Below are positions 858 to 14,952 of a stretch of DNA of 19,139 bases, piece by piece (positions within the stretch are counted from its first letter, which is position 1; every line of letters begins with the position of its first letter). This DNA comes from Phycisphaerales bacterium (GTDB lineage: Bacteria > Planctomycetota > Phycisphaerae > Tepidisphaerales > Tepidisphaeraceae), in the NCBI GenBank assembly GCA_003153655.1, contig PMAK01000092.1, positions 775 to 19,913 on the forward strand, written 5' to 3'. The notes beneath the pieces are model-generated. The model did no database searches. It saw nothing but the letters and a program-made list of their open reading frames with translations, and was not told where the DNA came from. The translations under genes and the position numbers were made by a program.

Positions 858-869
858 GTAACCGCTTAC
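858..869. promoter_or_regulatory. LacI-type operator, copy 1 (GTAACCGCTTAC)
   Basis: This site fits GTAANCGNTTAC. On the minus strand it begins 3 bases after a TAATAT -10 box, so a bound repressor would cover the transcription start of the secreted-protein gene starting at 708. It is one of seven copies in the window that differ only at positions 5 and 8. Confidence 0.85.
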
Positions 870-872
870 TAT

Positions 873-900
873 ATATTACTTGAAGGGTCAGATGTGTCAA
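873..900 (-). promoter_or_regulatory. Sigma-70-like promoter of the secreted-protein gene
   Basis: On the minus strand a perfect TTGACA -35 box (895-900) is separated by 16 bases from a TAATAT -10 box (873-878). The operator follows 3 bases later. The leader to the ATG at 708 is roughly 155 bases. Confidence 0.7.
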
Positions 901-921
901 GAAAAAAAAGTCAAGGATTCG

Positions 922-1986
922 TCAGTCTTTAGATTGAAGGATGGCGCTGTTGGCTGGTCGGACGCTGCTCGGCGGTGGGGCTGTAGAGCCTCGAACGATC
1001 AGGTCCTCGGCAACCTTAATGTCCCTCCCTGAATGCGGCTGCGGGGAGAGCAGATGGTTTAAAAGTAAATCAGCGCCCAAGCGACCCATCTCCCGCCCGG
1101 CAACCGCGACCGCAGTCAGTGGCGGATAGAGTATCGCAACCGGGAAGACGTCATTGAAGCAGATCATGCTGAAGTCCTGCGGCACTCGCAATCCCAGGCC
1201 GTACGCCGCGCCCAACACCATGACGGCAATTTGATGATCGTAGGTGATGACAGCGGTGGCGCCGCCTTCAATGACCATCGCCCGCACAAACTCCGCGGGA
1301 GAATGAAATGGCGTATCGTGGCCCGGAACCAGGCGAATGGCCTGATCGCGGACCGTTGCGAGCAACGTTCCATAACGCTCGTTCACGCTGTAGTGGCTGA
1401 AATAGGCGGCGCGAGCGTTAGCATATGCAAAACGCTTGTGGCCCAATTGCGACAGATGTGAAATCGCCCGCTTCATCCCCATCGCGTCGTCAGCCAGGAC
1501 ATACATGGCGGGGCGGCCCACGCGCTCGTTTACGCACACGTATGGCACGCGGCGGAGATCCAACTCAGTTACCGTTTCGGGTTTGGGCGCCTGCATCAGA
1601 ATGGCGCCGTCAAATCGCCAGAATGGCAGGGGATTCTTCGTGCTGCGGATGGGGCTCAGTCCGAAGAAAACGTCGTAGCCGCCGGCATGCAGGGTTTCGG
1701 CGATGCCTTCGATCAGAGATTCGTTGATGCCCTCGGCCACGTGAGTCTGTGGCGAGGCGAACAATCCAATCACGCGAGTGTTTCGTAGGCTCAGGCTGCG
1801 TGCGCTGAGGTCGGGCACGTAGCCCAGCTCGCGCGCGGTGTCCCAGATTTTTTGTCGGACAGCTTCAGTGGTGGAGAAGTTTTTCTTCTGGTCATTGAGG
1901 ACGCGGCTTACGGTGGCAGCGGTCACGCCGCAAAGCTTCGCCACGTCGGTGATTGTCGGCCTTTTGCTCACGGCAGAATTATACAC
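922..1986 (-). CDS. LacI/GalR-family transcriptional regulator, probable repressor of the xylan regulon
   Basis: The 354-residue product has the classic family layout. An N-terminal helix-turn-helix occupies residues about 11-30 (TITDVAKLCGVTAATVSRVL), followed by a hinge helix (LSARSLSLRNTRVIG), and a periplasmic-binding-protein-like sensor domain fills the rest. Members bind palindromes with a central CG and are released by a small ligand, usually a sugar. The window has seven such palindromes, one of them between this gene and the upstream xylanase, so self-regulation is likely. The effector is unknown; xylose or xylo-oligosaccharide is inferred from the target genes. The first possible start is GTG at 1986. 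A second GTG at 1971, giving MSKRPTITDV, fits family length better. Neither has a good ribosome site, and a TATAAT lies 6 bases before the 1971 GTG. An eight-T run (902-909, minus strand) just after the stop may help end transcription. Confidence 0.93.
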   Translation of the reverse strand: MYNSAVSKRPTITDVAKLCGVTAATVSRVLNDQKKNFSTTEAVRQKIWDTARELGYVPDLSARSLSLRNTRVIGLFASPQTHVAEGINESLIEGIAETLHAGGYDVFFGLSPIRSTKNPLPFWRFDGAILMQAPKPETVTELDLRRVPYVCVNERVGRPAMYVLADDAMGMKRAISHLSQLGHKRFAYANARAAYFSHYSVNERYGTLLATVRDQAIRLVPGHDTPFHSPAEFVRAMVIEGGATAVITYDHQIAVMVLGAAYGLGLRVPQDFSMICFNDVFPVAILYPPLTAVAVAGREMGRLGADLLLNHLLSPQPHSGRDIKVAEDLIVRGSTAPPPSSVRPANSAILQSKD

Positions 1987-2083
1987 AGAATTCGCAGAAA
2001 AGCGTGCTAAAAGCGGCGAAACTGAATTGGTGCTTCGATTTTCGATCTCATCGGCGGCGTATGTTTGAGATAGACCGTGCGTA

Positions 2084-2095
2084 GTAATCGATTAC
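2084..2095. promoter_or_regulatory. LacI-type operator, copy 2 (GTAATCGATTAC)
   Basis: A perfect 12-bp palindrome in the 186-base gap between the end of the xylanase gene (2173) and the start of the LacI gene (1986). It lies about 100 bases upstream of the regulator, on its strand, which suggests autoregulation. No convincing -35/-10 pair was seen beside it, unlike the other copies. Confidence 0.8.
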
Positions 2096-2172
2096 CTTGT
2101 AACACCTTTACCGCTTCGGCAAATTGGGAAGATTTCACCGTCTGACGGCGTGGAACAGCGGTATGTGACGGC

Positions 2173-3990
2173 TTACTGTATCTGAACGATCAGCCGCGAT
2201 CCGCCAGGCTCGATTTGGGCCGTGACGGTTTTGTTTTTTCCGCCGGAGGTGACCGAGAGATCGTAGTCGCCGTAGAAGCCGCGAATCTCGGCCGCGCCGT
2301 GATCGTCGGTGTTCACCGTCACGTTGGTGGTCCATTGCTTCTGCGTCAAATCAATCCACATCTGCGCGGCCGGCCGCATTGACCAGTCGGTGGCGAAAAT
2401 TCCACCATCGGGGCGCCAATGCCGCCCTTGCCAGAATCCCCAGAGCATGATGTCGTTCACGCTCGGGTGGGAGAACATTGCGATCATGTAATCGCGCAAG
2501 TAATCCGACTGCAACTGCCCATCTTGAAGGCTGATGCTGACTTCCGTCATTTCGATTGGCAAATTAAATATCGCGAATCGGTCGAGAATTTTCAGCATGG
2601 CCTCGGGGGCGGCCAGGTCGGTGCCGAAATGGGATTGCATGCCGATTCCGCCGATGGGCGCGCCGTTGTCCTGAAGGTATTTGATGTTGTTATAGAAGTC
2701 ATCGCGATGTTCGCTGTGGGCTCCGCCCTCCATGATCCCGAAGTCGTTGAGAAATAGAATGCAATTGGGATCGGCGGCGTGGGCGAGCTTGTACCAATCG
2801 ATCATCACCGCGCGGCCGCCGAGCAAATCAATCAAATCGTGATTCGTGTACGGCTCGTTGACCACGTCCCAATCGACCAGTTGGCCGCGGAAATGGGAAA
2901 CCATATATGTGATATGCTTGGCCGTGATTTCCCGAAGTTTTTTCGGATCTTTTTGATAGGCCTTGAGCTCGGTAGGCAGCCATTTCCAACTCGGCCAAAC
3001 CAGGTTATGGCCACGGACGGGAATGTTGTTATCGCGGAGCCATTTCAACGCGAGATCCACATCCGGCGGGACGCCGTTCCATGTTGCCTGCCATTTCATC
3101 TCATTTTCGAAAACCGCCCGATTGAACAGTGACAGAACCGTCTGGCGATAGCGCACCGCATCCGGCGATTTGCCGAGAAGCAGATCAGCATCCACGCAGG
3201 TGCCGAATCCGAACGCATGCCTGCGAAGCACCGCATGAATCTCGGCGTTCGGAACCGGAGCGCCGGCGGCGTCCGTGACATAAACATCCAGATCACCCTT
3301 GCGGATTTTTTCGATCCGCGCGAGAGCATCTTTTCGCCACTGAGCGTTTGGATCGCGCCCGGCGTAGGTGATTTTCGTCTGGGGAAGATCCTCGAATTTC
3401 ACCAGCGACTGGTAATTAACGACCGAAATCCCGCCGAGCTCGATGGTTTGGCGATCAAATCCCGCGCGGAAGGCGACATGCGCCTGATCGGCTGGGAAAT
3501 CGATTTTTGCTTGAAACGGGATGAATACTTCTTTCCATTTCGGGCCGCTGCTGATCTTGAATTCGACGGCTTTGTCGAACGGGTCGTGGGCGATTTCAAA
3601 GACGAAGGTGGTATACCCCTCGCCGGTCATGGAGTCGTCGCATTTCAGCCAGAAATGGGCGAGAAGGACATCCCCTTTTTTAACGGGCTGAATTACTGGA
3701 GCCACAATCTGGGTGTACCATTCGGCACGGGCTCCCGGCGAAGTTTCGACTTGAATTGCCTGATTGAAATCTGGATGGTCGGCTTTGACGATTTGAATCT
3801 TGCCAAGCTGCAACTGGATTCCGAAGAGGCTATAGGCTGCTAGGCCCGAGGATGGCAAGACGGATTGGCCTGGGGGGAGCGGGTGTCCGTCGGTTGCTTT
3901 GATTGGGGAATTGGCTGAGCAACTAGATAGGGCGAGCAATCCAGCAATGAACAGGCAATGAAGGATGCTTCGGTTTTTGTGGAATGACAT
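2173..3990 (-). CDS. GH10 endo-1,4-beta-xylanase-like lipoprotein
   Basis: The product is 605 residues from the chosen ATG. It starts with a lipoprotein signal: MSFHKNR, a hydrophobic core and lipobox LSSC with Cys24. A TTG at 4032 would add 14 residues in frame but spoils the signal. Residues about 35-200 form a beta-rich region resembling a carbohydrate-binding module. The GH10 barrel runs from about 225 to 555: HNLVWP, WDVVNEP carrying the acid/base Glu379, GIGMQSHFG, MTEVSI carrying the nucleophile Glu483, and a late Trp-rich segment (WGFWQGRHW). The last 50 residues look like a small beta domain. GH10 enzymes cut internal beta-1,4 bonds of xylan with retention of configuration. The nucleophile motif reads TEVS instead of the usual TELD, so specificity may differ. 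The gene follows a small membrane protein and a pseudopilin and is probably transcribed with them from the promoter near 5700. Confidence 0.92.
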   Translation of the reverse strand: MSFHKNRSILHCLFIAGLLALSSCSANSPIKATDGHPLPPGQSVLPSSGLAAYSLFGIQLQLGKIQIVKADHPDFNQAIQVETSPGARAEWYTQIVAPVIQPVKKGDVLLAHFWLKCDDSMTGEGYTTFVFEIAHDPFDKAVEFKISSGPKWKEVFIPFQAKIDFPADQAHVAFRAGFDRQTIELGGISVVNYQSLVKFEDLPQTKITYAGRDPNAQWRKDALARIEKIRKGDLDVYVTDAAGAPVPNAEIHAVLRRHAFGFGTCVDADLLLGKSPDAVRYRQTVLSLFNRAVFENEMKWQATWNGVPPDVDLALKWLRDNNIPVRGHNLVWPSWKWLPTELKAYQKDPKKLREITAKHITYMVSHFRGQLVDWDVVNEPYTNHDLIDLLGGRAVMIDWYKLAHAADPNCILFLNDFGIMEGGAHSEHRDDFYNNIKYLQDNGAPIGGIGMQSHFGTDLAAPEAMLKILDRFAIFNLPIEMTEVSISLQDGQLQSDYLRDYMIAMFSHPSVNDIMLWGFWQGRHWRPDGGIFATDWSMRPAAQMWIDLTQKQWTTNVTVNTDDHGAAEIRGFYGDYDLSVTSGGKNKTVTAQIEPGGSRLIVQIQ

Positions 3991-4032
3991 AGCAACCGTA
4001 TTCGTTGCAAGTGTGCGGGTATTCGTATCCAA

Positions 4033-4521
4033 TTACGGCGAGACGGGCTGAGGTTTATCCATTTGGCCGTTGGGGCACCGGACGTCAATAATCGCTCGTC
4101 CTTCCGGACTGTAGGAAGGAACCCAGTTCTTGTCGCCAGGCCTTTTGACGAGAGTGTCCGAAGAACGGGAAACAGGCTGATGCTGCCCACTAATTTTTTC
4201 AATGCCGGTCAATTGATCATGTAATTCTTGAGTGTATGTTTCGAGGTAGCCTGCGAACGTCCCGCCATTGGAACATTTGAAAACATGGCAGCGAACAGCG
4301 GTCGCGCCGTCATGGTCATATGGAAGCACCTTATCGCCAGCGTCTACAAACCAGGAATGACCATCGTCTGTCGTAAAATAATCCTGCCCGGCAGGCGGGA
4401 GCGGCGGTGGACGGTTTCCCCGAAACTGCCAGACAATGAATACCAAAATCAGAACGATCACGCCGCCAATAGCGCCGCTTGAGAGACCAGGTTTTTCGTT
4501 AATTTGCTCGCGAAGACCCAA
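4033..4521 (-). CDS. Small membrane-anchored protein of unknown function
   Basis: I do not recognise a named family. The 162-residue product has a short basic N-terminus, one transmembrane helix at residues about 16-33 (GAIGGVIVLILVFIVWQF), a proline-rich linker (RPPPLPP), then a soluble domain of about 110 residues presumably facing the periplasm. That domain opens with YFTTDDGHSWFVDAGDK and carries a conspicuous AVRCHVFKC segment; its two Cys five residues apart could form a disulfide or bind metal. The start is TTG, supported by GGAG 6 bases upstream (TTGGAGTAAGCG). It begins 30 bases after the pseudopilin stop and ends 42 bases before the xylanase ATG, so it is almost certainly in one operon with them. 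That position suggests a role in secretion or assembly of the surface proteins, which is inference. Confidence 0.8.
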   Translation of the reverse strand: MGLREQINEKPGLSSGAIGGVIVLILVFIVWQFRGNRPPPLPPAGQDYFTTDDGHSWFVDAGDKVLPYDHDGATAVRCHVFKCSNGGTFAGYLETYTQELHDQLTGIEKISGQHQPVSRSSDTLVKRPGDKNWVPSYSPEGRAIIDVRCPNGQMDKPQPVSP

Positions 4522-4551
4522 CGCTTACTCCAAATCCTATCATCAGCAATC

Positions 4552-5583
4552 TCACGGGTTCACATTGATATGCATGCGAGTCAGGTCCGTGGTATTGGTT
4601 CGTGGATTATAGTTATAAACGTCTACGTGACCGTCAACACATAACGCGTTGCACTGAGTGTTATTGTTGTGACGAAAGCGAAGATTTCCTGATCCGTCAC
4701 CACCACCGGGCTGATCGCTGTTCAATTCCGTATCGGTGTTAATATTCGCTGCAGGCACACCGGGGGTGGGTGTGACGTCAATCGGCTGCCCGGCATTGAT
4801 AGGAGCAGCACCCTGATTCGAGGCAATTCCATACTGGTCTGTCAAACCGGTCTGCTGCAAACCGGTGTCATTCGGATAACGGAAGCGCCCATTGTCAATA
4901 CGATATCCGACGGGACCATCGGTTGGGACGTCAAAGCCATACGGCGGTTGGAGGAAAAGAGTGGCATCAAAGATGAGACAAATATCAGAACTGCGTTTGA
5001 TATGCGCAATCGTATACGGACCCAAAATCCGATTAGCGATTGGATCTATGGGATCCGCCCAGCTTGTCAACATCGGCATCAAGCGAGGATGGCAAACGTA
5101 CTGACATTCCGTAACCCCGGCGTTGTCGTTTGCGAGGACGAGACCTTGCGCTTCCGCCTCCGGACAATAAAAGACATGGCGAATCGCGCTGTTGGTCCCT
5201 CCAATTGCCGCATTGTCTGTATAATTGTTGGCGGCCTTACCCATATAGGGCTGTATCAACACAGACCAATTTGACCAGTATAGGACTGTCAGCCCAAATG
5301 CGTTTCTTCCCGTGTGGGTGTTGTACATTCCATCCCAATAACCATACGGAAGCAGGCCTTGGTTGTCGCCGGCATACATGATGATCGATTGGCCAATCTG
5401 GCGCAGGTTTGATTGACACTGAACTCCCATGGCGGCCTCGCGGGCACGGCCCAGAGCAGGGAGTAGAATCGAAATGAGCAGCGCGATGATCCCGATAACG
5501 ACCAAGAGCTCAACGAGCGTAAAGGCTTTGACGGAGCGAAGGATCCGACTAATCCTAATATCGTATTTGGTGTGAATCGACAT
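4552..5583 (-). CDS. Pseudopilin-like protein A (prepilin N-terminal methylation motif, H-Xn-DG C-terminus)
   Basis: The 343-residue product carries the type IV prepilin signature: a basic leader, cleavage after Ala20, then [20 protein letters not shown] with the conserved Glu25. After the helix comes the [11 protein letters not shown] segment typical of the large planctomycete DUF1559-like group. Near the C-terminus [17 protein letters not shown] is a version of the H-X9-DG processing-associated motif, here with 11 residues between His and Asp. It ends INVNP. Such proteins are handled by prepilin peptidase and sit in the inner membrane or in pilus/secretion fibres. The ATG at 5583 has GGAAAGG upstream. 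The operator at 5676 and a strong promoter precede it; a paralogue lies directly upstream. The exact role is unknown. Confidence 0.88.
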
Positions 5584-5675
5584 AAAAGCAATACCTTTCC
5601 GGTCTGGGCGTTACCCTTTGCCTGATATGAACTCCAACCGCGATTTACGTCCCTCCAGAGCCTTTGCGCCGTCAA

Positions 5676-5687
5676 GTAACCGTTTAC
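5676..5687. promoter_or_regulatory. LacI-type operator, copy 3 (GTAACCGTTTAC)
   Basis: On the minus strand it begins 3 bases after a TATAAA -10 box, in the same layout as copy 1. It should control pseudopilin A, the small membrane protein and the GH10 xylanase as one unit. Confidence 0.87.
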
Positions 5688-5690
5688 TTA

Positions 5691-5718
5691 TTTATATCGG
5701 AGCGCTAATTAATGTCAA
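5691..5718 (-). promoter_or_regulatory. Sigma-70-like promoter of the pseudopilin A/xylanase operon
   Basis: On the minus strand TTGACA (5713-5718), a 16-base spacer and TATAAA (5691-5696) are followed 3 bases later by the operator. The arrangement is nearly the same as at 873-900 although the spacer sequences differ. Confidence 0.72.
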
Positions 5719-5769
5719 GATAATTTCACGGATTTGATGTCCGCTTTGAATTTTATCGGAGGGATTGTC

Positions 5770-6816
5770 TCAGGGGTTCACGTTTATGTTGCTGCGGAGG
5801 AGGTCGGTCTGCTTAGTTCGGGAGTTGTAATTGAAGGCCTGCACGTGGCCATCAACCATAAGGGCGTTGCACTGCGTATTGCCCATGTGGCGGAAGCGGA
5901 GGTTTCCGCTATTGCCGTAGATACCCGAATTCCAATCCGAATCCGTGTTAGCTAGGGAGTCGTACGGTGTGCCATCGGCGGGCTGGATATCTATCGGCTG
6001 TCCTGCATTGATAGGGCCGCCCGCGCCCGCGTTGCCGGAAAATCCATATACGTCGGTCAGTTGTGTGGTGGCCTCCCCAGATACTCTCATTCGTCCGGCA
6101 TCCAAACCGAACGCAACGGGAACCGTTGACGGGACGTTCCAACCTCCACTGCCGTTCACAAGCGCCGCGTCGAAAATAAGGCAAATGTCCGAGCTTCGCT
6201 TAATGTGCGAAATATTGTAAGGAAGGTCGAAGCGGTTGGTAACCTGATCATCCGGGGTGGGATGAGCATTAACGACATCCGGCGTTTCCTCAAAACCCTC
6301 CATCCACGGCATCAGGCGCGGATGGCACACGTATTGGGTTATTGTCGCGCCAGCCGTATTGATTGTTGGCAGTGATGCAGCCTCCGGGCACAGGAAGACT
6401 TGACGAAGCGAGCTTGTGAGGCCACCAGTCGCCGCATTGTCCGTAAAATTATTCGAACCCTTACCCATATACGGCTGAATTTCCACGGACCAGACGGTCC
6501 AATAAATCGTCTTGGGATTGATCTGAGGATCCCTGCCAGTCGCTGGGTTCCAAAGGCCATTCCAATACCCCATGGGCAATGTGCCTTGGTAATCATTCGC
6601 ATACATGACGATCGCCTGGCCAATTTGCCGGAGATTTGATTGGCATTGAACGGAGTTGGCGCTTTCGCGAGCGCGGCTCAAGGCGGGGAGCAAAATAGAA
6701 ATCAGCAGGGCGATGATGCCAATGACGACGAGGAGCTCGACCAGGGTAAAGGCAGTGCGTTGAGGCGGCGGAATATGCATAGATGCGAAGTCACTGTCGC
6801 GTTTCGCCATGGACAT
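5770..6816 (-). CDS. Pseudopilin-like protein B, paralogue of A
   Basis: The 348-residue product has a 22-residue leader ending in Ala22, then [20 protein letters not shown] with Glu27, and [11 protein letters not shown] after the helix. It matches protein A along most of its length: [49 protein letters not shown], and the C-terminal RHMGNTQCNALMVDGHV (again 11 residues between His and Asp) ending INVNP. The ATG at 6816 is chosen because GGAG lies 7 bases upstream. A longer in-frame start at 6909 would put the operator inside the coding region. The pair looks like a tandem duplication, each copy with its own operator. Function is unknown; cleavage by prepilin peptidase is expected from the motif. 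Confidence 0.87.
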   Translation of the reverse strand: MSMAKRDSDFASMHIPPPQRTAFTLVELLVVIGIIALLISILLPALSRARESANSVQCQSNLRQIGQAIVMYANDYQGTLPMGYWNGLWNPATGRDPQINPKTIYWTVWSVEIQPYMGKGSNNFTDNAATGGLTSSLRQVFLCPEAASLPTINTAGATITQYVCHPRLMPWMEGFEETPDVVNAHPTPDDQVTNRFDLPYNISHIKRSSDICLIFDAALVNGSGGWNVPSTVPVAFGLDAGRMRVSGEATTQLTDVYGFSGNAGAGGPINAGQPIDIQPADGTPYDSLANTDSDWNSGIYGNSGNLRFRHMGNTQCNALMVDGHVQAFNYNSRTKQTDLLRSNINVNP

Positions 6817-6882
6817 TTCGTCTCCGCCTTCAATTGCCACTCGTCCTACCTGTGATCGCGAAATGCGCTGACTTGGAAAACA

Positions 6883-6894
6883 GTAACCGATTAC
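6883..6894. promoter_or_regulatory. LacI-type operator, copy 4 (GTAACCGATTAC)
   Basis: It lies 67 bases upstream of the pseudopilin B ATG at 6816, next to a possible promoter on the minus strand. It keeps the ten fixed bases of the motif. Confidence 0.85.
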
Positions 6895-6922
6895 TTTACG
6901 CATCGGCAAGATTTGCCGTCAA
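6895..6922 (-). promoter_or_regulatory. Possible promoter of pseudopilin B (weak -10)
   Basis: On the minus strand TTGACG (6917-6922) and a 16-base spacer lead to CGTAAA (6895-6900), a poor -10 box that abuts the operator. The spacer contains a perfect 6-bp inverted repeat, CGGCAA and TTGCCG (6904-6918). It is proposed mainly because the layout matches the stronger promoters. Confidence 0.4.
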
Positions 6923-7079
6923 GGGAAATCCAAGCAGCGTGGCTTTTTGGCTGATGGGAAAGTTTTGAGTAAGGGAAATGCCGTTCTGGTGGCTTGGGCG
7001 ATTGGTATCACCTGCCGTTGAGAGGGATATTTGCCAGCACGTAGTTTTTTGCGTCAATAGACAGGGCCTTACGCGACGA

Positions 7080-7139
7080 GGGCAAATTGGGGTTATTTCT
7101 ATAATGGATTGGAAAATATGGCTTTATCCATATTTGCCC
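7080..7139. repeat. Overlapping inverted repeats upstream of the PEP-CTERM promoter
   Basis: GGGCAAAT (7080-7087) is matched by ATTTGCCC (7132-7139). Inside it, AAATATGG (7114-7121) and CCATATTT (7128-7135) form a perfect 8-bp stem with a 6-base loop. The region ends 19 bases before the -35 box at 7159, so it could be an activator site or alternative hairpins. No protein is known to match it. Confidence 0.5.
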
Positions 7140-7158
7140 CATAATTACAACTTTTTAA

Positions 7159-7186
7159 TTGACATTCATTTTGAACGCATTATATT
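7159..7186 (+). promoter_or_regulatory. Sigma-70-like promoter of the PEP-CTERM gene
   Basis: TTGACA (7159-7164), a 16-base spacer and TATATT (7181-7186), with the operator starting 6 bases later at 7193. This is one of the three best promoters in the window. Confidence 0.75.
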
Positions 7187-7192
7187 TCGGGA

Positions 7193-7204
7193 GTAATCGT
7201 TTAC
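7193..7204. promoter_or_regulatory. LacI-type operator, copy 5 (GTAATCGTTTAC)
   Basis: It overlaps the expected transcription start of the PEP-CTERM gene. The leader from here to the ATG at 7312 is about 110 bases. Confidence 0.87.
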
Positions 7205-7311
7205 TTAGATCGTTGATTGCGGTGCCGTGGCCGGCAAACCACGGAGCGGTACAAAACACTTTATGTCCAGATCGCGCCGGGGTTTTGGACTTTTCTGATG
7301 GAGGGCTTCTC

Positions 7312-8283
7312 ATGTCGAATTTTGGTAAAGCACGCGTCGCTACCCGCCGAGCCATTATGGCTGCGGGAGTCCTCGCGGCTGCGTCTTCATATTCCGCCTT
7401 CGGTGGAATTGTTACAGGGACCTTCACCTCGCCACTCACTACCGGCTTGGTTCTGTCGGCGGATATTAATGGCGGCGTCATTGCCTCCAATAACTCCACG
7501 ACGGAAGGGTCCAATGGACCTGCTTCCAGCCCAGTGCTGAGCGCTGATCCGTTTGGCGTGACCTGGTCCGCCTGGGGTGGCCCGACCAACACCAACGGCG
7601 ACGGCACCCAGTTGCCGAACAGCAATGCGTCGCCGACGGCGGCGGCATCGAGCATTAGCAAGACATTTGCCGGCGGCATCACCGCGACGCTCAGCGAAGC
7701 GGGCACTGCCTCCAACTACGGCACGGTCAGCAGCATCGAGTCGTTGAACGGCCGCGATCGCGGCACACCATCCGGTGCGGCGAACGATAACGATATGTTC
7801 CGGGACTTCGAATTTGCAGGCGCAGCCGGCTCGGCTATTCAGAGTACCAACTACCTCCAGCTTCAGGTCGGCGGCCTAGCGGCATCTACTTCTTACGAGA
7901 TCGCCCTCTATTCGTTTGACACCACGGGATCGCATTCGATGAACTGGACGGCCACGGCGCCGACTTCCAACCTGTCGAACGGTGGGCATCTTGGCTACAA
8001 CCCCGATCCGACGGATGTCTTCACGGCTCCGGCTGATGAACAGACGATCACCTGGACGAGCGGTGGCGCGAATCCGGCTCCAGCCGAATTCACAATCACC
8101 AGCAGTGCCACAGGCAGCCTTACTGTTTGGGGCTGGGGCGGCAACGGCATCACCGGCAGCCAAAACTCCGACACGTCGTACCTCAACGGCTTCCAGATCG
8201 CGGCTGTTCCAGAGCCCACCACCCTCGGCCTTATCGGCGTGGCTGGTTTCGGGCTGATGGCACGTCGCCGTCGGCAGGCTTAA
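7312..8283 (+). CDS. PEP-CTERM surface-anchored protein
   Basis: The 323-residue product starts at ATG 7312, placed by GGAGGG 7 bases upstream; an in-frame open region reaching back to 7159 would take in the promoter and operator. The N-terminus is a signal peptide (MSNFGKARVATRRAIMAAGV, cleavage near residue 31 after SAFG). The C-terminus is a textbook PEP-CTERM tail: VPEP, a hydrophobic stretch (LGLIGVAGFGLMA) and a basic end (RRRRQA). PEP-CTERM proteins are processed by an exosortase and end up at the cell surface or in extracellular matrix. The middle is Gly/Ser/Thr/Asn-rich with FRDFEFA, LQVGGLAASTSYEIALYSFD and MNWTATAP, suggesting a beta-sandwich; carbohydrate binding is possible but unproven. 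A strong terminator follows it, so it is a single-gene unit under the shared operator. Confidence 0.9.
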   Translation: MSNFGKARVATRRAIMAAGVLAAASSYSAFGGIVTGTFTSPLTTGLVLSADINGGVIASNNSTTEGSNGPASSPVLSADPFGVTWSAWGGPTNTNGDGTQLPNSNASPTAAASSISKTFAGGITATLSEAGTASNYGTVSSIESLNGRDRGTPSGAANDNDMFRDFEFAGAAGSAIQSTNYLQLQVGGLAASTSYEIALYSFDTTGSHSMNWTATAPTSNLSNGGHLGYNPDPTDVFTAPADEQTITWTSGGANPAPAEFTITSSATGSLTVWGWGGNGITGSQNSDTSYLNGFQIAAVPEPTTLGLIGVAGFGLMARRRRQA

Positions 8284-8323
8284 GTCATAAGTTTGGTTTC
8301 TGAGCTTTCAGTCCATAAAGTCA

Positions 8324-8371
8324 CGACGCCAGCAGTAAGCCTCCTCTTGCTGCTGGCGTCGCGGCGCTTTT
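8324..8371 (+). terminator. Rho-independent-type terminator after the PEP-CTERM gene
   Basis: A perfect 12-bp stem, CGACGCCAGCAG (8324-8335) with CTGCTGGCGTCG (8350-8361), has a 14-base loop. It is followed by CGGCGCTTTT; the T run is short. Confidence 0.75.
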
Positions 8372-8431
8372 GAACCTGGCATTTCCTCAGGGTGTTCCCG
8401 GCCTATGGCTCAGAACCGCTGCGCATTTCCC

Positions 8432-8459
8432 TTGACGCGGAACGAATCGATATTAAGTT
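8432..8459 (+). promoter_or_regulatory. Probable promoter of the ABC transporter operon
   Basis: TTGACG (8432-8437), a 16-base spacer and TAAGTT (8454-8459) end 2 bases before the operator. The boxes are weaker than at 7159 but the layout is the same. Confidence 0.5.
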
Positions 8460-8461
8460 AA

Positions 8462-8473
8462 GTAAACGGTTAC
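8462..8473. promoter_or_regulatory. LacI-type operator, copy 6 (GTAAACGGTTAC)
   Basis: It precedes the ABC transporter operon by 216 bases and follows a TTGACG-16-TAAGTT promoter. Confidence 0.85.
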
Positions 8474-8689
8474 TCAGCCCAGCGGGCGGTTCGGCGGCAT
8501 TTGAGTTGGACGGGTCTATTGGCGTCGTTTTTCCTCGGAAGCCTGCGGCCGTTCCAGGCTTGTTCGATGTCAGAGCGCCTTTTGCAATGTTGGTAACCAA
8601 TCCTTAGGTTCGATGCGCGTTCGCCAGTTTTCCCCCATGGCTTCGACGACTTTAATTGGACCGAAATTGATCGACCGGGCGATATCACC

Positions 8690-10090
8690 ATGAAGTTTCC
8701 TTACGGTCCCGCGCCGTTGGCGATCCTCATCATCGCAGTGCTGACGGGAATTGCGCTGGCCGTTTGGGGTCCGCTTTCGCACGCGCCTGATTATCGACCG
8801 CCGGATCTTGTCCTTGCGACCTTCGTTCCCGAACAAGCGGAGGTCTATCACAACGCAATCCCGGAATTCGAAAAGCAAAATAACTGCAAGATTGAAATCG
8901 AGCTCGTCGATCAGAACGCGCTGCAAAGCCGGCTGCAATCCGCCCTCCAGGTCGGCGCGGATGTGCCGGATATGGTCGAGTTGATGTACGGCACCATGGG
9001 CGTCTTTACCAAGGGGCCGCTGGAAGATGTCGGGCTTGTCGATCTGACGGACAAGATTAAGGCCAGCGGTCTTTATGATCGACTGGTCACCAATCGACTT
9101 TCCAAATGGTCATCCCGCGGACATGTATTTGCGTTGCCGCATGACGTTCATCCCGTGCTTTTGTGTTATCGCCGCGATTTGATGGAGCAGCTGGGGATCG
9201 ACATAAACAAGCTGACAACGTGGGAAGAATTTTCCCGCGTAGGCCGCGAGGTCGTAAAAAAAACGATGCGGCCCGATGGCGTTCCCGAGCACTACATGAT
9301 CGATATGCAGTCGGACGGCAATGACACGCTCATTCTGCTGCTGCTGCAGCACGGAGTCGGATTGTTCGATGCCGCGGGAAATGTGACGTTCGATAGCCCC
9401 GCGGCTCTTGATGTCGTCTGCTGGTATGTCAAACAAGTAGAAGGCCCGACCCGTATTTCATTTCCATGCGGAGAAGGGCAGAACTTTGCCAAGGCGATGA
9501 TTGATGGATTGTGTCTGTTCTATTTTTGCCCGGATTGGCGGGCCAATCGGATTGAATTGGAAATTCCCAGCCTGTCCGGCAAACTCGCGCTGATGCCGAT
9601 GCCCGCGTGGGAACCCGGCGGCTTGCGCACCAGCACGTGGGGCGGCGCGGGGCTGGCATTTACCAAACAATGCCGCAATTTTGATCTCGCCTGGAAGCTG
9701 GCGATGTATCTTTATTATGATCGGGCGCAGCTGGGTCCGCGGTATGCGGTCACTCATATTCTCCCGCCGCTGAAGTCCGCGTGGGATTTGCCGCAGCTCT
9801 CCGAATCGAGCCCGTTTTACAGCAACCAGTCTTTGGGCAAAGTTTACTCGGCGATGGCGCCTTTCGTGCCGGAAGAACATGACTTCGCATACAACACGAT
9901 TGCCAATGGCAAGCTCTCCGAAGCGTTCACGAACGCCTCGTATTATTACAAGGTTCATGGAGAAGACGGCCTGCGGGAATATGCGCGCGCGGAATTGAAA
10001 CGCTGCGCGGATCATGTTCGGCTTGTCATGGCGCGAAATGTCTTCTTGAAGCCGCAGCCCGCGCAGGTTTCGGAGGCATCGGGCAAATGA
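8690..10090 (+). CDS. ABC transporter sugar-binding protein (family 1 extracellular solute-binding)
   Basis: The 466-residue product has a hydrophobic N-terminal segment at residues about 9-25 (PLAILIIAVLTGIALAVW) that can be a signal peptide or an uncleaved anchor. No lipobox Cys follows it, although many binding proteins of this class are lipoproteins. The mature part reads as a family 1 binding protein: EFEKQNNCKIEIELVD early on, GADVPDMVEL, FALPHDVHPVLLCYRRD, and TWGGAGLAFTKQCRNFDLAW late. It should capture an oligosaccharide outside the inner membrane and hand it to the two permeases that follow; xylo-oligosaccharide is inferred from the locus. The ribosome site before the ATG is weak, but the frame upstream (open only back to 8597) offers no better start. 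The stop overlaps the next gene by ATGA. Confidence 0.88.
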   Translation: MKFPYGPAPLAILIIAVLTGIALAVWGPLSHAPDYRPPDLVLATFVPEQAEVYHNAIPEFEKQNNCKIEIELVDQNALQSRLQSALQVGADVPDMVELMYGTMGVFTKGPLEDVGLVDLTDKIKASGLYDRLVTNRLSKWSSRGHVFALPHDVHPVLLCYRRDLMEQLGIDINKLTTWEEFSRVGREVVKKTMRPDGVPEHYMIDMQSDGNDTLILLLLQHGVGLFDAAGNVTFDSPAALDVVCWYVKQVEGPTRISFPCGEGQNFAKAMIDGLCLFYFCPDWRANRIELEIPSLSGKLALMPMPAWEPGGLRTSTWGGAGLAFTKQCRNFDLAWKLAMYLYYDRAQLGPRYAVTHILPPLKSAWDLPQLSESSPFYSNQSLGKVYSAMAPFVPEEHDFAYNTIANGKLSEAFTNASYYYKVHGEDGLREYARAELKRCADHVRLVMARNVFLKPQPAQVSEASGK

Positions 10091-11019
10091 GTGAATCATC
10101 AATCGCCAAACGCGCGCCGATCGGCTGGAGGCTTCGCAGCCGCAGTACGCCGTATGTTTTTCTCTTTCCCTATGTGGCTATCAACCTGGTCTTTTTTCTC
10201 CTTCCGCTGATTTACGCGACGGTCCTCGCGTTTTATCAAACCAATGGCCCCGCTCGCCGCGCTTATGTGGGCTGGAGCAACTTCACTTTCGTTCTGAAAG
10301 ATGCTGATTTTCACAAAGCACTATGGAACACGACGATCTTTGCGATCTTCTCCATTGGCTTGCAGCTTCCGCTGAGCCTCGGGCTGGCAATGCTGCTGAA
10401 CGCGAAGAACGACCGTTTTAAGGGAATTTTTCGGCTTGCGATTTTCGCGCCAAATCTGGTCGGGCAGGTTTTCGTGGGTGTTATATTCTCGGTGTTGTTC
10501 ACGCCCCGCTACGGATTATTCAACCGGGGTCTTCAGGCGTTAACAGGGTGGGGGCTGGAGCAGCAATGGCTCGGGGATTCCAAGCTGGTCATGCCCGCCA
10601 TCATTATTGCGGCGATGTGGATGTACGTTGGGTTCAACATGATTTATTTTCTGGCTGCGCTGCAGAACGTCGATCAAAATCTGATCGAAGCGGCGAAAAT
10701 CGACGGCGCCGGCCCGGGTAATATTTTCTTGAACGTCATCGTTCCCGCCATCGCGCCGGTGGCCACCTTTGTCGTTGTCACCAGCACGATCGGGTCTTAT
10801 CAGCTTTTTGAGCTTCCATATAATATGCTTAAGAATAACGGCGGGGGGTATGGTCCCAGCAATAGCGGGCTAACCATCGTGGGTTATCTGTATCAAAACG
10901 CGTTTACGAATGGTGATCTTGGGACCGGCGCAGCCGTGGGTTGGCTGCTGACATTCATCATTCTCATCATCAGTCTGGTGCAAATCCGAATCGTCGGCAG
11001 CGTGGGGAGCGAAATATGA
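10087..11019 (+). CDS. ABC sugar transporter permease, MalF/UgpA type
   Basis: The 310-residue product has about six transmembrane segments, the first at residues about 21-42 (PYVFLFPYVAINLVFFLLPL). The EAA loop that contacts the ATPase is visible near residue 203 (EAAKIDGAGPGNIFLNVIVP). The length and N-terminal FLFPY motif match the first permease of carbohydrate-uptake type 1 importers. The ATG overlaps the binding-protein stop by ATGA, with GGAGG 10 bases upstream; its own stop overlaps the next ATG in the same way, so translation of the three genes is probably coupled. Confidence 0.92.
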   Translation: MSESSIAKRAPIGWRLRSRSTPYVFLFPYVAINLVFFLLPLIYATVLAFYQTNGPARRAYVGWSNFTFVLKDADFHKALWNTTIFAIFSIGLQLPLSLGLAMLLNAKNDRFKGIFRLAIFAPNLVGQVFVGVIFSVLFTPRYGLFNRGLQALTGWGLEQQWLGDSKLVMPAIIIAAMWMYVGFNMIYFLAALQNVDQNLIEAAKIDGAGPGNIFLNVIVPAIAPVATFVVVTSTIGSYQLFELPYNMLKNNGGGYGPSNSGLTIVGYLYQNAFTNGDLGTGAAVGWLLTFIILIISLVQIRIVGSVGSEI

Positions 11020-11936
11020 ACTCGCTGCAGATTTTTGTGCTCGTTCTCGCAGCGCTCTTTATTTTGCTCTTGCCGTTTTCGCGCACCATCGCTTTCAAAT
11101 ACGGCCGCTTCGTTTTGCTTCTGTTCGTCGGGACAGTAATGCTTATGCCATTTGTGTGGCTCATCTGCTCCGCGTTCAAATCGACGGATGCGATGAGCCA
11201 ATATTCATTTCTTCCCCCGGTTTCAAAGATATCCAGTGAGACAATCAACCTGGGCAATTTTCATACGCTGTTGGCTCCGGAATCCACGGTTCAGGGGCCG
11301 GTCACATTTTGGCGCTATCTCACCAATTCGCTCTTCCTGGCTTCGACTCTCACTATCGTCTCGCTATTTTTCAGTTCGCTCGGGGGGTATGCACTGGCCA
11401 AACATCGTTTTGCTGGCCGGAACCTTTTCATGATTTACATGCTGGCATCAATGACCATTCCGGGCGTCGTTTTGCTCGCGCCGAACTTCGCGGTCATATG
11501 GCGGCTGGGCTGGATGGATACTTACAAAGCCCTCATCGTGCCCGGGGCGGTGGGGGCGTTCGGCATTTTTCTGTTTCGGCAGGCGATGCTTAGCGTTCCG
11601 AATGAGCTTATTGAAGCGGCGAGAATCGATGGGTGCAGCGAGTTCCGAATCTATCTGCAGTTGATCATGCCCCTAGTGAGGCCCATGAGCGGGGCGTTTT
11701 GCCTGATCAGCTTCATGGGCGCTTGGAACGCATTTTTAGCCCCCAATATCTTCCTACAGAGCCAGAGTAAGCTAACGTTGCCGGTTGTTTTGAATCAGTA
11801 CATGGGTACGTATGTGCAGCATTACGGCGTCTTTTTAGCCGGCACGCTACTGGCGATGATCCCGCCGGCAATTCTCTTCTTTTCGCTCCAAAAGGAGTTT
11901 ATTTCCGGTCTTACCAGCGGTGCTGTAAAGCAATAA
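11016..11936 (+). CDS. ABC sugar transporter permease, MalG/UgpE type
   Basis: The product is 306 residues from ATG 11016, chosen because it overlaps the previous stop (ATGA) and has GGGGAG just upstream; a longer in-frame start at 10941 lies inside the previous gene. It has the usual second-permease layout: an early segment ending MPFVWLICSAFKS, SLGGYALAKHRFAGRN, and the EAA loop EAARIDGCSEFRIYLQLIMP. The C-terminus SLQKEFISGLTSGAVK is close to the common MalG-type ending. No ATPase gene follows, so the importer must share an ATPase encoded elsewhere, as is common for this transporter class. Confidence 0.92.
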   Translation: MNSLQIFVLVLAALFILLLPFSRTIAFKYGRFVLLLFVGTVMLMPFVWLICSAFKSTDAMSQYSFLPPVSKISSETINLGNFHTLLAPESTVQGPVTFWRYLTNSLFLASTLTIVSLFFSSLGGYALAKHRFAGRNLFMIYMLASMTIPGVVLLAPNFAVIWRLGWMDTYKALIVPGAVGAFGIFLFRQAMLSVPNELIEAARIDGCSEFRIYLQLIMPLVRPMSGAFCLISFMGAWNAFLAPNIFLQSQSKLTLPVVLNQYMGTYVQHYGVFLAGTLLAMIPPAILFFSLQKEFISGLTSGAVKQ

Positions 11937-12015
11937 ATTGCTTCGCCGGGCCGGCTTCTTGCAAGCGATTTTACTTTCCTTGAAAGCAAAACTCGCTAAA
12001 ATGGAAATCGACTAA

Positions 12016-12027
12016 GTAAACGTTTAC
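12016..12027. promoter_or_regulatory. LacI-type operator, copy 7 (GTAAACGTTTAC)
   Basis: A perfect palindrome ending 13 bases before the GTG start of the GH52 gene. A TAAAAT at 11997-12002 could be the -10 box, with only a poor -35 candidate (TTTCCT, 11975-11980). A repressor bound here would block both transcription and access to the start codon. Confidence 0.88.
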
Positions 12028-12040
12028 CAAGAAAGCGACT

Positions 12041-14320
12041 GTGGGTAGCGAATTGTTGCCATTTGCGGGGAATATCAATTTTAACGCTCAGCACGCCCCA
12101 ATGGGGGCTTATATGAGCTTTACGTGCGGCCATTTCAACAGTGGCGGCGGGATTGGAATCGAAATTGGAAAGCCCGCGAGCCAAAACCTTTATATCGGGG
12201 TTAAGGATGGACGTCGCGCATCCTCGCAGCCCATCCGGTGCCTTCCCTTTTTCAAGGGGGGATCTGAGCTCCACGTGCCGGCCTCTTCATATGAGATAGA
12301 GGAGAGTGTTTTGGCGGCACCGCGCCAGTCGCTCCAGACATATGGCGCGGATCAGATTCGTCGTTTTTTTGGGTGGGGTTCGGATACTTGGCAGACGCCG
12401 GACTTCAAGTTCACCGTCTATAGTCCGTTCTCGCCGATTCCTGAGCCCAGCACGGATTCCGAAACTCTGAAGGCCTGCCTTCTTCCGGCGGTTATCGCCA
12501 CGCTTGAAGTTGATAACCGGCAGGGAACTGAGCCAAAGACGGCGGTCTTTGCCATCGATTTCGTTGAGCCCGGCGCGCGGATATTGGAATTTGACACTGC
12601 CGGCTCGGACCAAGGCAAGCTTGGCTTTGCCTGGCGGCGCAATATGGGCGTTCTTGGGCGAATCGAAAAGGATTCCGATCAGAGCGGAGGCGAGTTTCTT
12701 GCAATCCAGCGATGGCTCGTCGCCGAGGCATTGACTGATCCCAATCCGATTCACGCACTCGGCACCTGTGCGGGGCTTGCGATGGAAGTGCCGGCGGGAG
12801 TCAAAAAGACGCTTGTACTGGCCATCGGCGTTCATCTTGATGGGACGGTGACGACCGGCCTTGAGGGGCGCTATTACTATACGCGCTATTACACGAATTT
12901 GGATGAAGTATTAGCCGCCGCCCTCGATCGGGCTGCTGATCTCCAGACTAGCTCCGCGGTCTTGGACCAGCGGCTGGTCGATTCCGGGCTCTCAACCGAT
13001 CAGCAGTTTCTCATCGCCCATGGAACCCGCGGCTATTACGGCAGCACGCAGTTGCTCGATGTGGGCGGCGAGCCACTTTGGATCGTCAACGAGGGCGAAT
13101 ACTGCATGATGAATACCCTCGACTTGTCGGTGGATCATGCATTCTGGGAACTCAAGGATAATCCATGGGTTGTGCGAAATATACTGACCCATTTCGCCCG
13201 GCGATTCAGCTATCACGATCAGGTAAAAACACCGGGCGGTCAGTTGCGGCCCGGCGGAATTTCGTTTTGCCACGACATGGGGATCAACAATAACTTTTCC
13301 CCGCCGGGCAACAGCAGCTATGAGCTCGCGCATCTCAAGGGGTGCTTCTCGTACATGACGCAGGAGCAGCTTTGCAATTGGGTGCTGATGGCTGCCAGCT
13401 ATGTCGCCGCAACGCGGGATATCGACTGGCTGCTGGCCAACAAGCATCTGCTTGATGCATGCGCCCAAAGCATGCATGCTCGCGCAAACCAGCGCACGGG
13501 TTTGATGGCGTATGATTCGTCACGCTGCGTCGAGGGCAAGGAAATCACCACTTACGATTCTCTTGACGAATCCCTCGGCCAGGCCAGGGCCAATACTTAT
13601 CTGGGTACAAAATGCTGGGCCACATGGCTCGCGCTGGATTTTGTTTCGCGGCTGCGTTTCATGGCCGGGGACGTTCCAGCCGAGCCGGTTGCGTCGCTGA
13701 CCGAGCAACTGGCGGCCACTTTGATTTCATCAGCGACAGATGGATTAATCCCGGCCGTTCTGGAAAAGAATAATCCCGGCTTTCGCTCGCGCATATTGCC
13801 GGCGATTGAGGCGCTGATTTATCCGGCGTATTGGCTGTCCCTGATTCGCAACTGGCCGGCCGATCTGGCGGGTGATGCCGAGGAAATGCTCACACGCCAT
13901 CTGCAAGGTCCGCTGATTGATGTGTTGCGCCGGCATGTCCTGAAGCTGTTGACCGATCCACAAACCGCCAATATTTTCCCGGATGGTGGGCTGAAACTGT
14001 CCTCGACCTCGAACAATTCGTGGATGAGCAAGATCGCCATCGTTCAGTTCGTCGCCGAGTCGATTCTCCGCATTCAGGAGACCGACCCGCGAATTGCCGG
14101 CATCATGCGCAAGGCTGATGCGGCGCATGTGCGATGGCAAACGAATGGCAGCGGGTTCTGGGCGTGTTCGGATCAGTTCGTCAGCGGCGAGGCAAAGGGC
14201 AGCCGCTATTATCCGCGCATCATCACGGCCGCGTTGTGGCTGGAAGATTCCGCGAAATCCTGGCTTCCAACTGGATCCCCGGCGAAGTTTTCCCCAGCCG
14301 TTGCCAATCGGAAAGCGTAG
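12041..14320 (+). CDS. GH52 beta-xylosidase, cytoplasmic
   Basis: The 759-residue product matches what I know of family GH52, whose characterised members are beta-xylosidases. The N-terminus FNAQHAPMGAYMSFT corresponds to the family's FNAHHSPVGAF segment. The catalytic nucleophile segment is LWIVNEGEYCMMNTLDLSVD (Glu351 or Glu353), and the acid/base segment is EITTYDSLDESLGQAR (probably Asp506). Other conserved parts are GGISFCHDMG, LKGCFSYMT, FPDGGLKLSSTSNNSW, RKADAAHV and GSRYYPR. There is no signal peptide, so it should act in the cytoplasm on imported xylo-oligosaccharides, releasing xylose from non-reducing ends with retention. The start is a GTG with only a weak AAGAAAG upstream. The operator ends 13 bases before it. 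It lies 104 bases after the permease gene and may also be reached by read-through. Confidence 0.93.
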   Translation: MGSELLPFAGNINFNAQHAPMGAYMSFTCGHFNSGGGIGIEIGKPASQNLYIGVKDGRRASSQPIRCLPFFKGGSELHVPASSYEIEESVLAAPRQSLQTYGADQIRRFFGWGSDTWQTPDFKFTVYSPFSPIPEPSTDSETLKACLLPAVIATLEVDNRQGTEPKTAVFAIDFVEPGARILEFDTAGSDQGKLGFAWRRNMGVLGRIEKDSDQSGGEFLAIQRWLVAEALTDPNPIHALGTCAGLAMEVPAGVKKTLVLAIGVHLDGTVTTGLEGRYYYTRYYTNLDEVLAAALDRAADLQTSSAVLDQRLVDSGLSTDQQFLIAHGTRGYYGSTQLLDVGGEPLWIVNEGEYCMMNTLDLSVDHAFWELKDNPWVVRNILTHFARRFSYHDQVKTPGGQLRPGGISFCHDMGINNNFSPPGNSSYELAHLKGCFSYMTQEQLCNWVLMAASYVAATRDIDWLLANKHLLDACAQSMHARANQRTGLMAYDSSRCVEGKEITTYDSLDESLGQARANTYLGTKCWATWLALDFVSRLRFMAGDVPAEPVASLTEQLAATLISSATDGLIPAVLEKNNPGFRSRILPAIEALIYPAYWLSLIRNWPADLAGDAEEMLTRHLQGPLIDVLRRHVLKLLTDPQTANIFPDGGLKLSSTSNNSWMSKIAIVQFVAESILRIQETDPRIAGIMRKADAAHVRWQTNGSGFWACSDQFVSGEAKGSRYYPRIITAALWLEDSAKSWLPTGSPAKFSPAVANRKA

Positions 14321-14340: not shown

Positions 14341-14952
14341 TCAGGCCGCCGCGGCGCGTAATCGCTTGAGTTGCAATCGCTGCATTTCAGCGCTGATCAG
14401 CTGCATCTTTTTGCGAGCGGCGGCGTTATTTTGGGGGACGAGAAAGCCATAGCGAAATTTGCCGGCGCCTCGTTCCTGAACGGTCTGGACGCGTGCAGTG
14501 GCTTCGAAAGTTTCGCCTTCGCCTGTGAGTCTGATCTTTACTACCGCGCCGAGGCTGAGTTTCTTCTTGGTGATCGCGGCAAAGCCTTCGGGGCTGATAT
14601 CAACGACCTGGCAACCCGGCTCTTTATCAACGTCAACAACAAACTCCGAGGTGACAAGAGAGACTCGGAAGGTCTGACGGCTCTCAGCGGAAACCGGCTC
14701 GCCGTTCCGGCGGAAACAAATCACGCATGGGTTGTTTGTGCGGATCTCGGTGACGATTGCTCCCTGCTGGAAGAATTTTCCGCGCACCTCGCAATAGGCG
14801 TTGACGTCGCCATTCACGGTTGGGGTGATCGATTCTTCGAATTCAGCCACGAAACTGGTGGCGTCGGATTCGACGACTTTACCGGGATGAAGAACACGTT
14901 TCTTCGACGGAGATGGGATCAAAAGATAAACGGCATTTCCAACAGCAAGCAT
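14341..14952 (-). CDS. PilZ-domain protein, probable cyclic-di-GMP receptor
   Basis: The product is 203 residues from ATG 14952, which has AGGAG 7 bases upstream; an in-frame extension to 15000 lacks a site. Residues 1-80 are a beta-rich N-terminal domain resembling the YcgR N-terminal fold. The PilZ domain follows with both ligand motifs intact: RQTFR (Arg92, Arg96; RxxxR) and DISPEG (Asp118, Ser120, Gly123; DxSxxG). The C-terminus is a basic helix rich in Lys, Arg and Ala. PilZ proteins bind cyclic-di-GMP and alter motility, surface polysaccharide or transcription. It converges with the GH52 gene with only 20 bases between them, and has no copy of the locus operator, so it is probably not part of the xylan regulon. 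Confidence 0.9.
   Translation of the reverse strand: MLAVGNAVYLLIPSPSKKRVLHPGKVVESDATSFVAEFEESITPTVNGDVNAYCEVRGKFFQQGAIVTEIRTNNPCVICFRRNGEPVSAESRQTFRVSLVTSEFVVDVDKEPGCQVVDISPEGFAAITKKKLSLGAVVKIRLTGEGETFEATARVQTVQERGAGKFRYGFLVPQNNAAARKKMQLISAEMQRLQLKRLRAAAA

What the first reader, a model, noticed from the sequence alone, without database searches (positions are those of the whole stretch)
858..12027. Seven copies of one operator define a local xylan regulon
GTAANCGNTTAC occurs at 858, 2084, 5676, 6883, 7193, 8462 and 12016. Ten of twelve bases never vary, and every copy is upstream of a gene in this locus: secreted protein, LacI gene, pseudopilins A and B, PEP-CTERM protein, ABC importer and GH52 xylosidase. 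I saw no copy in the coding regions or in 14341-19139. The CG-centred palindrome is the kind bound by LacI-family proteins and one is encoded here. The pairing of this regulator with this motif is inference.
Basis: partly seen in the sequence, partly recalled or inferred. Interest (0 to 1): 0.85.

Follow-up and report, generated by a model that had tools for sequence, protein, structure and literature searches.

The report
One repressor, several xylan gene clusters
A planctomycete appears to use one repressor and one short DNA palindrome to switch on, together, its xylan-digesting enzymes, a sugar importer and two pilin-like proteins of unknown role.

Summary
In detail: seven exact GTAANCGNTTAC sites, none in 200 shuffles. 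The 4.65-Mb genome has 15 sites: seven here, one before GH115+GH67 genes, one before a GH10 gene, one before a corrinoid methyl-transfer operon, two at a second LacI locus, three inside reading frames. Four other genomes of the family with orthologues of this LacI (60-71% identity) have 17 sites, 16 of them taken as outside genes, beside GH10, GH67, GH115, GH52, pseudopilin and PEP-CTERM genes. Of 26 regulon sites, 19 lie just behind a sigma70-like promoter on the target side, 0 of 26 in either control: the layout of a repressor that blocks transcription start. Closest known system: XynR of Anaerocellum bescii, a LacI-family xylan regulator, one of whose validated operators contains the motif (PMC12285236). 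Caveat: the 12-mer is not exclusive; an unrelated LacI uses the same core. Binding and inducer are untested. The unusual part is that pseudopilin genes are among the targets.

The parts
858..869 (.). operator copy 1, before a secreted-protein gene that runs leftwards from 708
   Evidence: exact match; TTGACA-N16-TAATAT, -10 starting 9 bases before the site
1..708 (-). start of a secreted-protein gene, cut by the window edge
   Evidence: no Pfam match
922..1986 (-). LacI-family regulator
   Evidence: PF00356 and PF13377 over cut-off
2084..2095 (.). operator copy 2, 109 bases before the LacI gene (autoregulation)
   Evidence: promoter score only 8 of 12
2173..4032 (-). GH10 endoxylanase, probable lipoprotein (likely ATG near 3990), last gene of the operon behind 5676
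   Evidence: PF00331, E 7e-47
4033..4521 (-). small protein of no known family with one hydrophobic stretch, between pseudopilin and GH10
   Evidence: no Pfam or NCBIfam match
4552..5583 (-). DUF1559 pseudopilin B
   Evidence: PF07596, PF07963
5676..5687 (.). operator copy 3, before pseudopilin B
   Evidence: TTGACA-N16-TATAAA
5770..6828 (-). DUF1559 pseudopilin A (ORF listed to 6909; likely ATG at 6828)
   Evidence: PF07596, PF07963; 60% identical to pseudopilin B
6883..6894 (.). operator copy 4, before pseudopilin A
   Evidence: TTGACG-N18-TAAAGT, overlapping the site by two bases
7193..7204 (.). operator copy 5, before the PEP-CTERM gene
   Evidence: TTGACA-N16-TATATT
7312..8283 (+). PEP-CTERM protein
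   Evidence: PF07589, TIGR02595
8462..8473 (.). operator copy 6, before the importer genes
   Evidence: promoter score 8 of 12
8690..11936 (+). ABC importer: binding protein 8690-10090, permeases 10087-11019 and 11004-11936; no ATPase gene among them
   Evidence: PF13416/PF01547, PF00528 twice
12016..12027 (.). operator copy 7, 25 bases before the GH52 gene
   Evidence: promoter score 8 of 12
12041..14320 (+). GH52 beta-xylosidase, no signal peptide seen
   Evidence: PF03512, E 1.8e-134

Best explanation
The LacI-family protein encoded at 922-1986 is a substrate-responsive repressor of a (glucurono)xylan regulon spread over several loci. As a dimer it sits on GTAANCGNTTAC, which at most targets begins within a few bases of the -10 box and so covers the transcription start, shutting out RNA polymerase; a xylan breakdown product (xylobiose, a xylo-oligosaccharide or xylose) releases it. 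This turns on together the secreted GH10 xylanase, the GH67 and GH115 alpha-glucuronidases, a xylo-oligosaccharide importer, the GH52 beta-xylosidase, two DUF1559 pseudopilins, PEP-CTERM proteins and the repressor itself. Shown by computation: the sites, their placing behind promoters, the targets, and co-conservation with the LacI orthologue. Inferred: binding, sign of control, inducer, and any role of the pseudopilins.
For: Seven exact sites, 0 in shuffles. GH115+GH67 and GH10 at two further sites of the genome. Orthologues of the LacI in 4 of the 25 other family genomes sampled; in G010 2 of 2 and in G021 1 of 1 genomic sites lie at the LacI locus, in G020 4 of 8 on the two LacI contigs. 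Of 32 sites in the five genomes, 4 are taken as inside genes, 2 are at the C5 locus, and 24 of the other 26 are in a cluster with a xylan-enzyme gene. 19 of 26 sites directly behind a sigma70-like promoter, 0 of 26 in each control; 15 of 22 without four divergent sites. Site counts 6.4 against 1.19 per family genome with and without the orthologue, p=0.005; 4.25 and p=0.017 without the window's genome; reversed pattern 3.6 against 3.2. In another family of the class 6 of 9 loci of 35-38% homologues have two GTAAACGTTTAC before LacI.
Against: The core is not exclusive: the C5 LacI, its G005 orthologue and a further LacI in G016 have it upstream. The orthologue at 50% identity in G093 and three of nine homologues at 35-38% have no exact site in the fetched stretch. 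7 of 26 sites, three of them in the window and the GH115 one, have no promoter of 9 of 12 in place. One-mismatch sites are fewer than for the reversed pattern (67 against 162), so weak sites add no support. In six genomes of the distant family 12 of 29 exact sites are at LacI; of five others examined, one is before a TonB receptor gene and three are beside a gene cluster with only weak GH30 similarity; twelve were not examined. Binding and inducer untested.
Confidence: 0.85

Rival explanations
1. Shared operator: two or more LacI paralogues (the xylan LacI and the C5 LacI of a different glycan locus) bind the same sites, so that this is a cross-regulated glycan network and not a one-regulator regulon.
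For: Same 12-mer at the C5 locus (GTAACCGCTTAC also occurs at window 858) and at the C5 orthologue in G005.
Against: G002, G010, G020 and G021 have no match to the C5 LacI at E 1e-50 yet keep the sites at xylan genes; the G005 site has outer bases T/A where xylan sites mostly have A or G / C or T.
Confidence: 0.1
2. The LacI protein activates, or acts like the global CcpA, through these sites instead of repressing a xylan regulon.
For: Seven of 26 sites have no strong promoter directly upstream.
Against: 19 of 26 sites lie at or behind the -10 box, where activation is not expected; only 15 sites in the genome, nine of them at xylan loci.
Confidence: 0.04
3. Chance or a repeat element spread through the locus.
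For: Exact sites outside the window (8) are about as many as matches of the reversed pattern in the whole genome (7), and three of them are inside reading frames.
Against: 0 in 200 shuffles; the conserved stretch is about 16 bases with unrelated flanks; kept at corresponding genes of other genera.
Confidence: 0.01

Closest known systems
XynR of Anaerocellum (Caldicellulosiruptor) bescii, LacI family (PMC12285236; abstract and passages seen)
   Same: LacI-family regulator of a multi-locus xylan regulon with transporter, endoxylanase, beta-xylosidase, esterase and alpha-glucuronidase genes; CG-centred operators; the validated XDL operator actagtaaacgcttacgata contains GTAANCGNTTAC.
   Different: Firmicutes; its other four listed operators have GAAA on at least one side; xylulokinase is a target there and was not sought here; no pseudopilin or PEP-CTERM targets in the passages seen; orthology with the present protein not tested.
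GalR/PurR/CytR-type LacI repressors (recalled; NCBIfam models RbsR, CytR, PurR, GalR match below their cut-offs)
   Same: Domain architecture, CG-centred palindrome.
   Different: No equivalog cut-off is reached; different targets.
Alginate genes of Verruconatronum alginivorum (PMC13274419; passages seen)
   Same: Pseudopilin among the 17 genes over-expressed on a polysaccharide; a pseudopilin of the alginate gene cluster has at least 67 homologues in that genome.
   Different: Verrucomicrobiota, alginate; no LacI mentioned.
Gene-cluster surveys of Phycisphaerae and Planctomycetota (PMC11266412, PMC11131199; passages seen)
   Same: Xylan predicted as a substrate in Tepidisphaerales and Sedimentisphaerales.
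   Different: No word beginning with 'LacI' or 'pilin' in either main text; words such as 'pseudopilin' were not covered by that search; no operator seen in the passages.

Membership tests
LacI/GalR family transcription factor | N-terminal LacI helix-turn-helix plus periplasmic-binding-like sensor domain | tested here: met
   PF00356 44.8 bits (cut-off 27), PF13377 78.7 bits (cut-off 26.5)
LacI/GalR family transcription factor | Operator an even palindrome centred on CG, at the promoter | tested here: met
   (sequence only)
LacI/GalR family transcription factor | Specific binding, released or strengthened by a small effector | not testable with these tools
   needs purified protein
XynR-type xylan regulon | Targets are xylan hydrolases, transporter and alpha-glucuronidases at several loci | tested here: met
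   GH10, GH52, ABC importer in the window; GH115, GH67, GH10 elsewhere
XynR-type xylan regulon | Operator like the validated XynR operators | tested here: inconclusive
   exact with the XDL operator; the other four listed differ in one or both outer arms
XynR-type xylan regulon | Orthology with A. bescii XynR | not tested
   XynR sequence not at hand
DUF1559 pseudopilin | Type IV prepilin N-terminus and DUF1559 domain | tested here: met
   PF07963 and PF07596 over cut-off in both window proteins
Bacteroidota-type polysaccharide utilisation locus | SusC/SusD pair | tested here: inconclusive
   no such match among the ten window proteins scanned; genome not searched for it

The most novel reading that the evidence does not exclude
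The pseudopilins, with PEP-CTERM partners, are substrate-specific working parts of glycan use in these bacteria: one dedicated set per glycan, doing at the cell surface or across the periplasm a job comparable to SusC/SusD of Bacteroidota, and the LacI regulons tell which pilin belongs to which glycan. Support: pseudopilin promoters carry the xylan operator twice here, at both LacI loci of G020 and in G010, and 37 of 75 LacI matches in eight family genomes have a listed pseudopilin within 5 kb, 4.1 being expected.
Probability: 0.3. Interest if true: 0.75.

Novelty: new member of a known kind. Interest (0 to 1): 0.52.

Why it matters
It gives a concrete, testable regulon for widespread but little-cultured carbohydrate degraders. 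It ties two of the very numerous DUF1559 pseudopilins, whose role is open, to a named substrate, so that the question of what they do becomes an experiment on xylan. It also offers local regulators as a way to assign glycans to unexplained loci in these genomes.

Tried and rejected
Generalising the operator to other LacI-pseudopilin pairs failed. In 20 fetched loci with a LacI gene within 3 kb of a pseudopilin (the xylan loci left out), 1 of 25 pseudopilins had a CG-centred palindrome in the 300 bases upstream, against 1 of 21 pseudopilins away from LacI; of the 13 LacI genes that the script recognised in those loci 1 had one upstream. The neighbourhood is common, the operator at the pseudopilin is not.

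Demethylation of 4-O-methyl-glucuronate. Site C16:42452 precedes a UroD-type methyltransferase, a corrinoid protein and a RACo-like activator and, divergently, a methylene-THF-reductase-like gene, 8.8 kb from the GH115/GH67 site; a one-mismatch site stands about 70 bases before a homocysteine S-methyltransferase gene 6.3 kb on. GH115 and GH67 release that methylated sugar (recalled), so the idea is tempting. Against it: of three orthologues at 84-88% identity, G019 has no such site in its divergent region, G020 has a one-mismatch site inside the start of the divergent gene and two TTGTATACAA palindromes, and G018 is cut off by the contig end; the homocysteine methyltransferase points to methionine synthesis. 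I rate it at about 7%. Four paper searches with demethylation terms listed 0, 2, 0 and 6 papers, none of which describes such a pathway by title and abstract opening; none was read.

Considered and dropped: chance or a repeat element.

Limits. Promoter test: I chose the side of four divergent sites after seeing scores; without them it is 15 of 22 against 0 and 0. Whether a site is outside a gene rests on assumed starts: of the 26 regulon sites, five (window 6883 and 7193, L095:1482, L096:5297, L066:14121) lie 15-223 bases inside the ORF of their own target as listed from the first start codon; the L095 protein has its signal-peptide-like stretch well after the site. Some other sites fall in antisense ORFs taken as spurious. 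One search listed 150 of 429 pseudopilin matches, so undercounts observed and expected alike; one of its 75 LacI matches is below the Pfam cut-off. Pfam scans covered chosen ORFs only. The assembly has 304 contigs and is 88% complete, so sites may be missing.
Full report
What is in the window. GTAANCGNTTAC occurs seven times without mismatch at the coordinates given and never in 200 dinucleotide-preserving shuffles; looser matches are near chance. In five of the seven copies the likeness reaches over 16 bases, AGTAANCGNTTAC plus three. The genes are LacI, GH10, a small protein of no family, two DUF1559 pseudopilins 60% identical to each other, a PEP-CTERM protein, an ABC binding protein with two permeases, and GH52. 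GH10 has no site of its own and probably follows pseudopilin B and the small gene in one operon behind site 5676.

Genome-wide. The genome (4.65 Mb, 304 contigs, 88% complete) has 15 sites; the pattern read backwards has 7. Eight lie outside the window. Two are on contig C5 at a second LacI gene beside a glycoside phosphorylase of the SOGP kind, a PF10091 enzyme, a pseudopilin and PEP-CTERM-type genes, which I read as a beta-1,2-glucan locus (substrate recalled). One precedes GH115 and GH67 genes, both alpha-glucuronidase families (C16:33609), and one a GH10 gene with GH44 further on (C83:1025). One stands between a methylene-THF-reductase-like gene and a corrinoid methyl-transfer operon (C16:42452). 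Three lie inside long reading frames (C227, C235, C262) and are taken as background. The regulon is therefore not local: it reaches at least two further xylan loci. At one mismatch the motif has 67 more places and the reversed pattern 162, so I make nothing of weak sites.

Relatives. The LacI protein was sought in 150 genomes; 15 have a match at E <= 1e-60, among them 5 of the 26 genomes of its own family, the window's included. The family is probably Tepidisphaeraceae, going by one source name. In G010 both genomic sites, and in G021 the only one, lie at the LacI locus; G020 has eight and G002 six. With the window's genome that makes 32 sites. Four are taken as inside genes and two are at C5. 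Of the other 26, 24 lie in a cluster with a gene of a xylan-enzyme family (GH10, GH52, GH67, GH115); the exceptions are the corrinoid operon and a PEP-CTERM gene on a 10-kb contig of G002, where four scanned ORFs showed no xylan family. A pseudopilin gene is the target at two window sites, at one site in each of the two G020 LacI loci and in G010; in G021 the site is next to a PEP-CTERM gene, with the pseudopilin 657 bases off on the other side. GH52 has the site again in G002.

Presence and absence. Family genomes with the orthologue have 6.4 sites on average (n=5), those without 1.19 (n=21; p=0.005); without the window's own genome 4.25 and p=0.017; the reversed pattern does not differ (3.6 against 3.2). 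Beyond the family, 6 of 9 loci of 35-38% homologues have two GTAAACGTTTAC before LacI; in the one annotated by Pfam, a pseudopilin, GH67, an MFS_2 sugar transporter and GH10 follow. In six genomes of that family 12 of 29 exact sites are these; of five others examined one is before a TonB receptor gene, one before no gene that I recognised, and three are beside a large secreted protein (in one scanned case CBM_4_9 with sub-threshold GH30) at the far end of a cluster with GH3; twelve were not examined. The 50% orthologue in G093 and three distant homologues have no exact site in the fetched stretch. In a tree of 32 LacI proteins the label 'has the site' needs 4 changes against 10.9 in shuffles: clustered, but not confined to one clade.

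Mechanism. For the 26 sites I scored the best -35/-10 pair with the -10 starting 4-20 bases before the site. On the target side 19 of 26 reach at least 9 of 12 consensus bases, mostly TTGACA-like, N16, TANNNT-like, with the operator overlapping or up to 11 bases behind; on the opposite side 0 of 26 and 60 bases further upstream 0 of 26. In the window it is 4 of 7. Leaving out four divergent sites whose side I had chosen with scores in view gives 15 of 22 against 0 and 0. This is the classical placing for steric repression at the transcription start. Repression, and release by a xylan product, are inferred from it and from the family.

Pairing and its limit. Co-occurrence, synteny and the site before the LacI gene itself argue for this LacI. 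But the 74% orthologue of the C5 LacI in G005, a genome without the xylan LacI at the threshold used, has CTGTAACCGCTTACAA upstream, and a further LacI in G016 has ATGTAACCGGTTACAT. Unrelated LacI proteins thus share the 12-mer core, and single sites need their outer bases or an experiment for assignment. The C112 LacI locus has a related but different palindrome, GTTAANCGNTTAAC with small departures, at three intergenic places.

Pseudopilins. With a 10-sequence alignment 22 DUF1559-type pseudopilins are found in this genome (the Pfam model finds 7). Five of its 6 LacI genes have one within 10 kb; over eight family genomes (one without LacI) 37 of 75 LacI matches have a listed one within 5 kb, 4.1 expected. 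An operator of this kind at the pseudopilin is not general. In Verruconatronum a pseudopilin is among the genes over-expressed on alginate (PMC13274419, passages seen), so glycan-linked pseudopilin expression is not peculiar to this window.

Known or new. XynR of A. bescii is a LacI-family xylan regulator with operators at xylanase, xylosidase, transporter and alpha-glucuronidase genes; its validated XDL operator contains GTAAACGCTTAC (PMC12285236, abstract and passages seen). The present system works like XynR; orthology was not tested. A search for papers with 'LacI family', 'Planctomycetes', 'regulon' and 'operator' gave none; the library holds only part of the literature. I file it as a new member of a known kind whose target list is unusual.

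Noticed in passing
L017:15453 (G000:C16:42452) and L101:7730 (G000:C16:48730): Exact site, with TATAAT ending 11 bases before it, at a corrinoid methyl-transfer operon, and a one-mismatch site before a homocysteine S-methyltransferase gene; a link to methyl groups of glucuronoxylan is possible but weak.
   Followed up: partly
L039:2165, 2402 and 6521 (G000:C112): Another LacI locus, with alpha-amylase-family genes, a pseudopilin and a variant operator GTTAANCGNTTAAC at three intergenic places.
   Followed up: partly
window 4033-4521; L040:4869-5952; L041:2480-3687: A small protein without a known family sits behind the pseudopilin; similar-looking small proteins (by eye, not compared by tool) sit in pairs behind pseudopilins at two further LacI loci of the genome.
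   Followed up: no
L016 (G000:C5:18424-36423): SOGP-type phosphorylase, PF10091 enzyme, own LacI, pseudopilin and PEP-CTERM gene with two sites of the same 12-mer.
   Followed up: partly
L172:3912 and 3937 (G020:C192): Two TTGTATACAA palindromes, GntR-type by recall, where the corrinoid operon of the window's genome has the LacI-type site.
   Followed up: no
window 14341-15000 and 16811-17605: PilZ-domain protein and GDSL-type esterase to the right of the regulon, without the operator.
   Followed up: no
window 18974-19139: Two 46-base copies 120 bases apart, 93% identical, at the right edge of the window.
   Followed up: no
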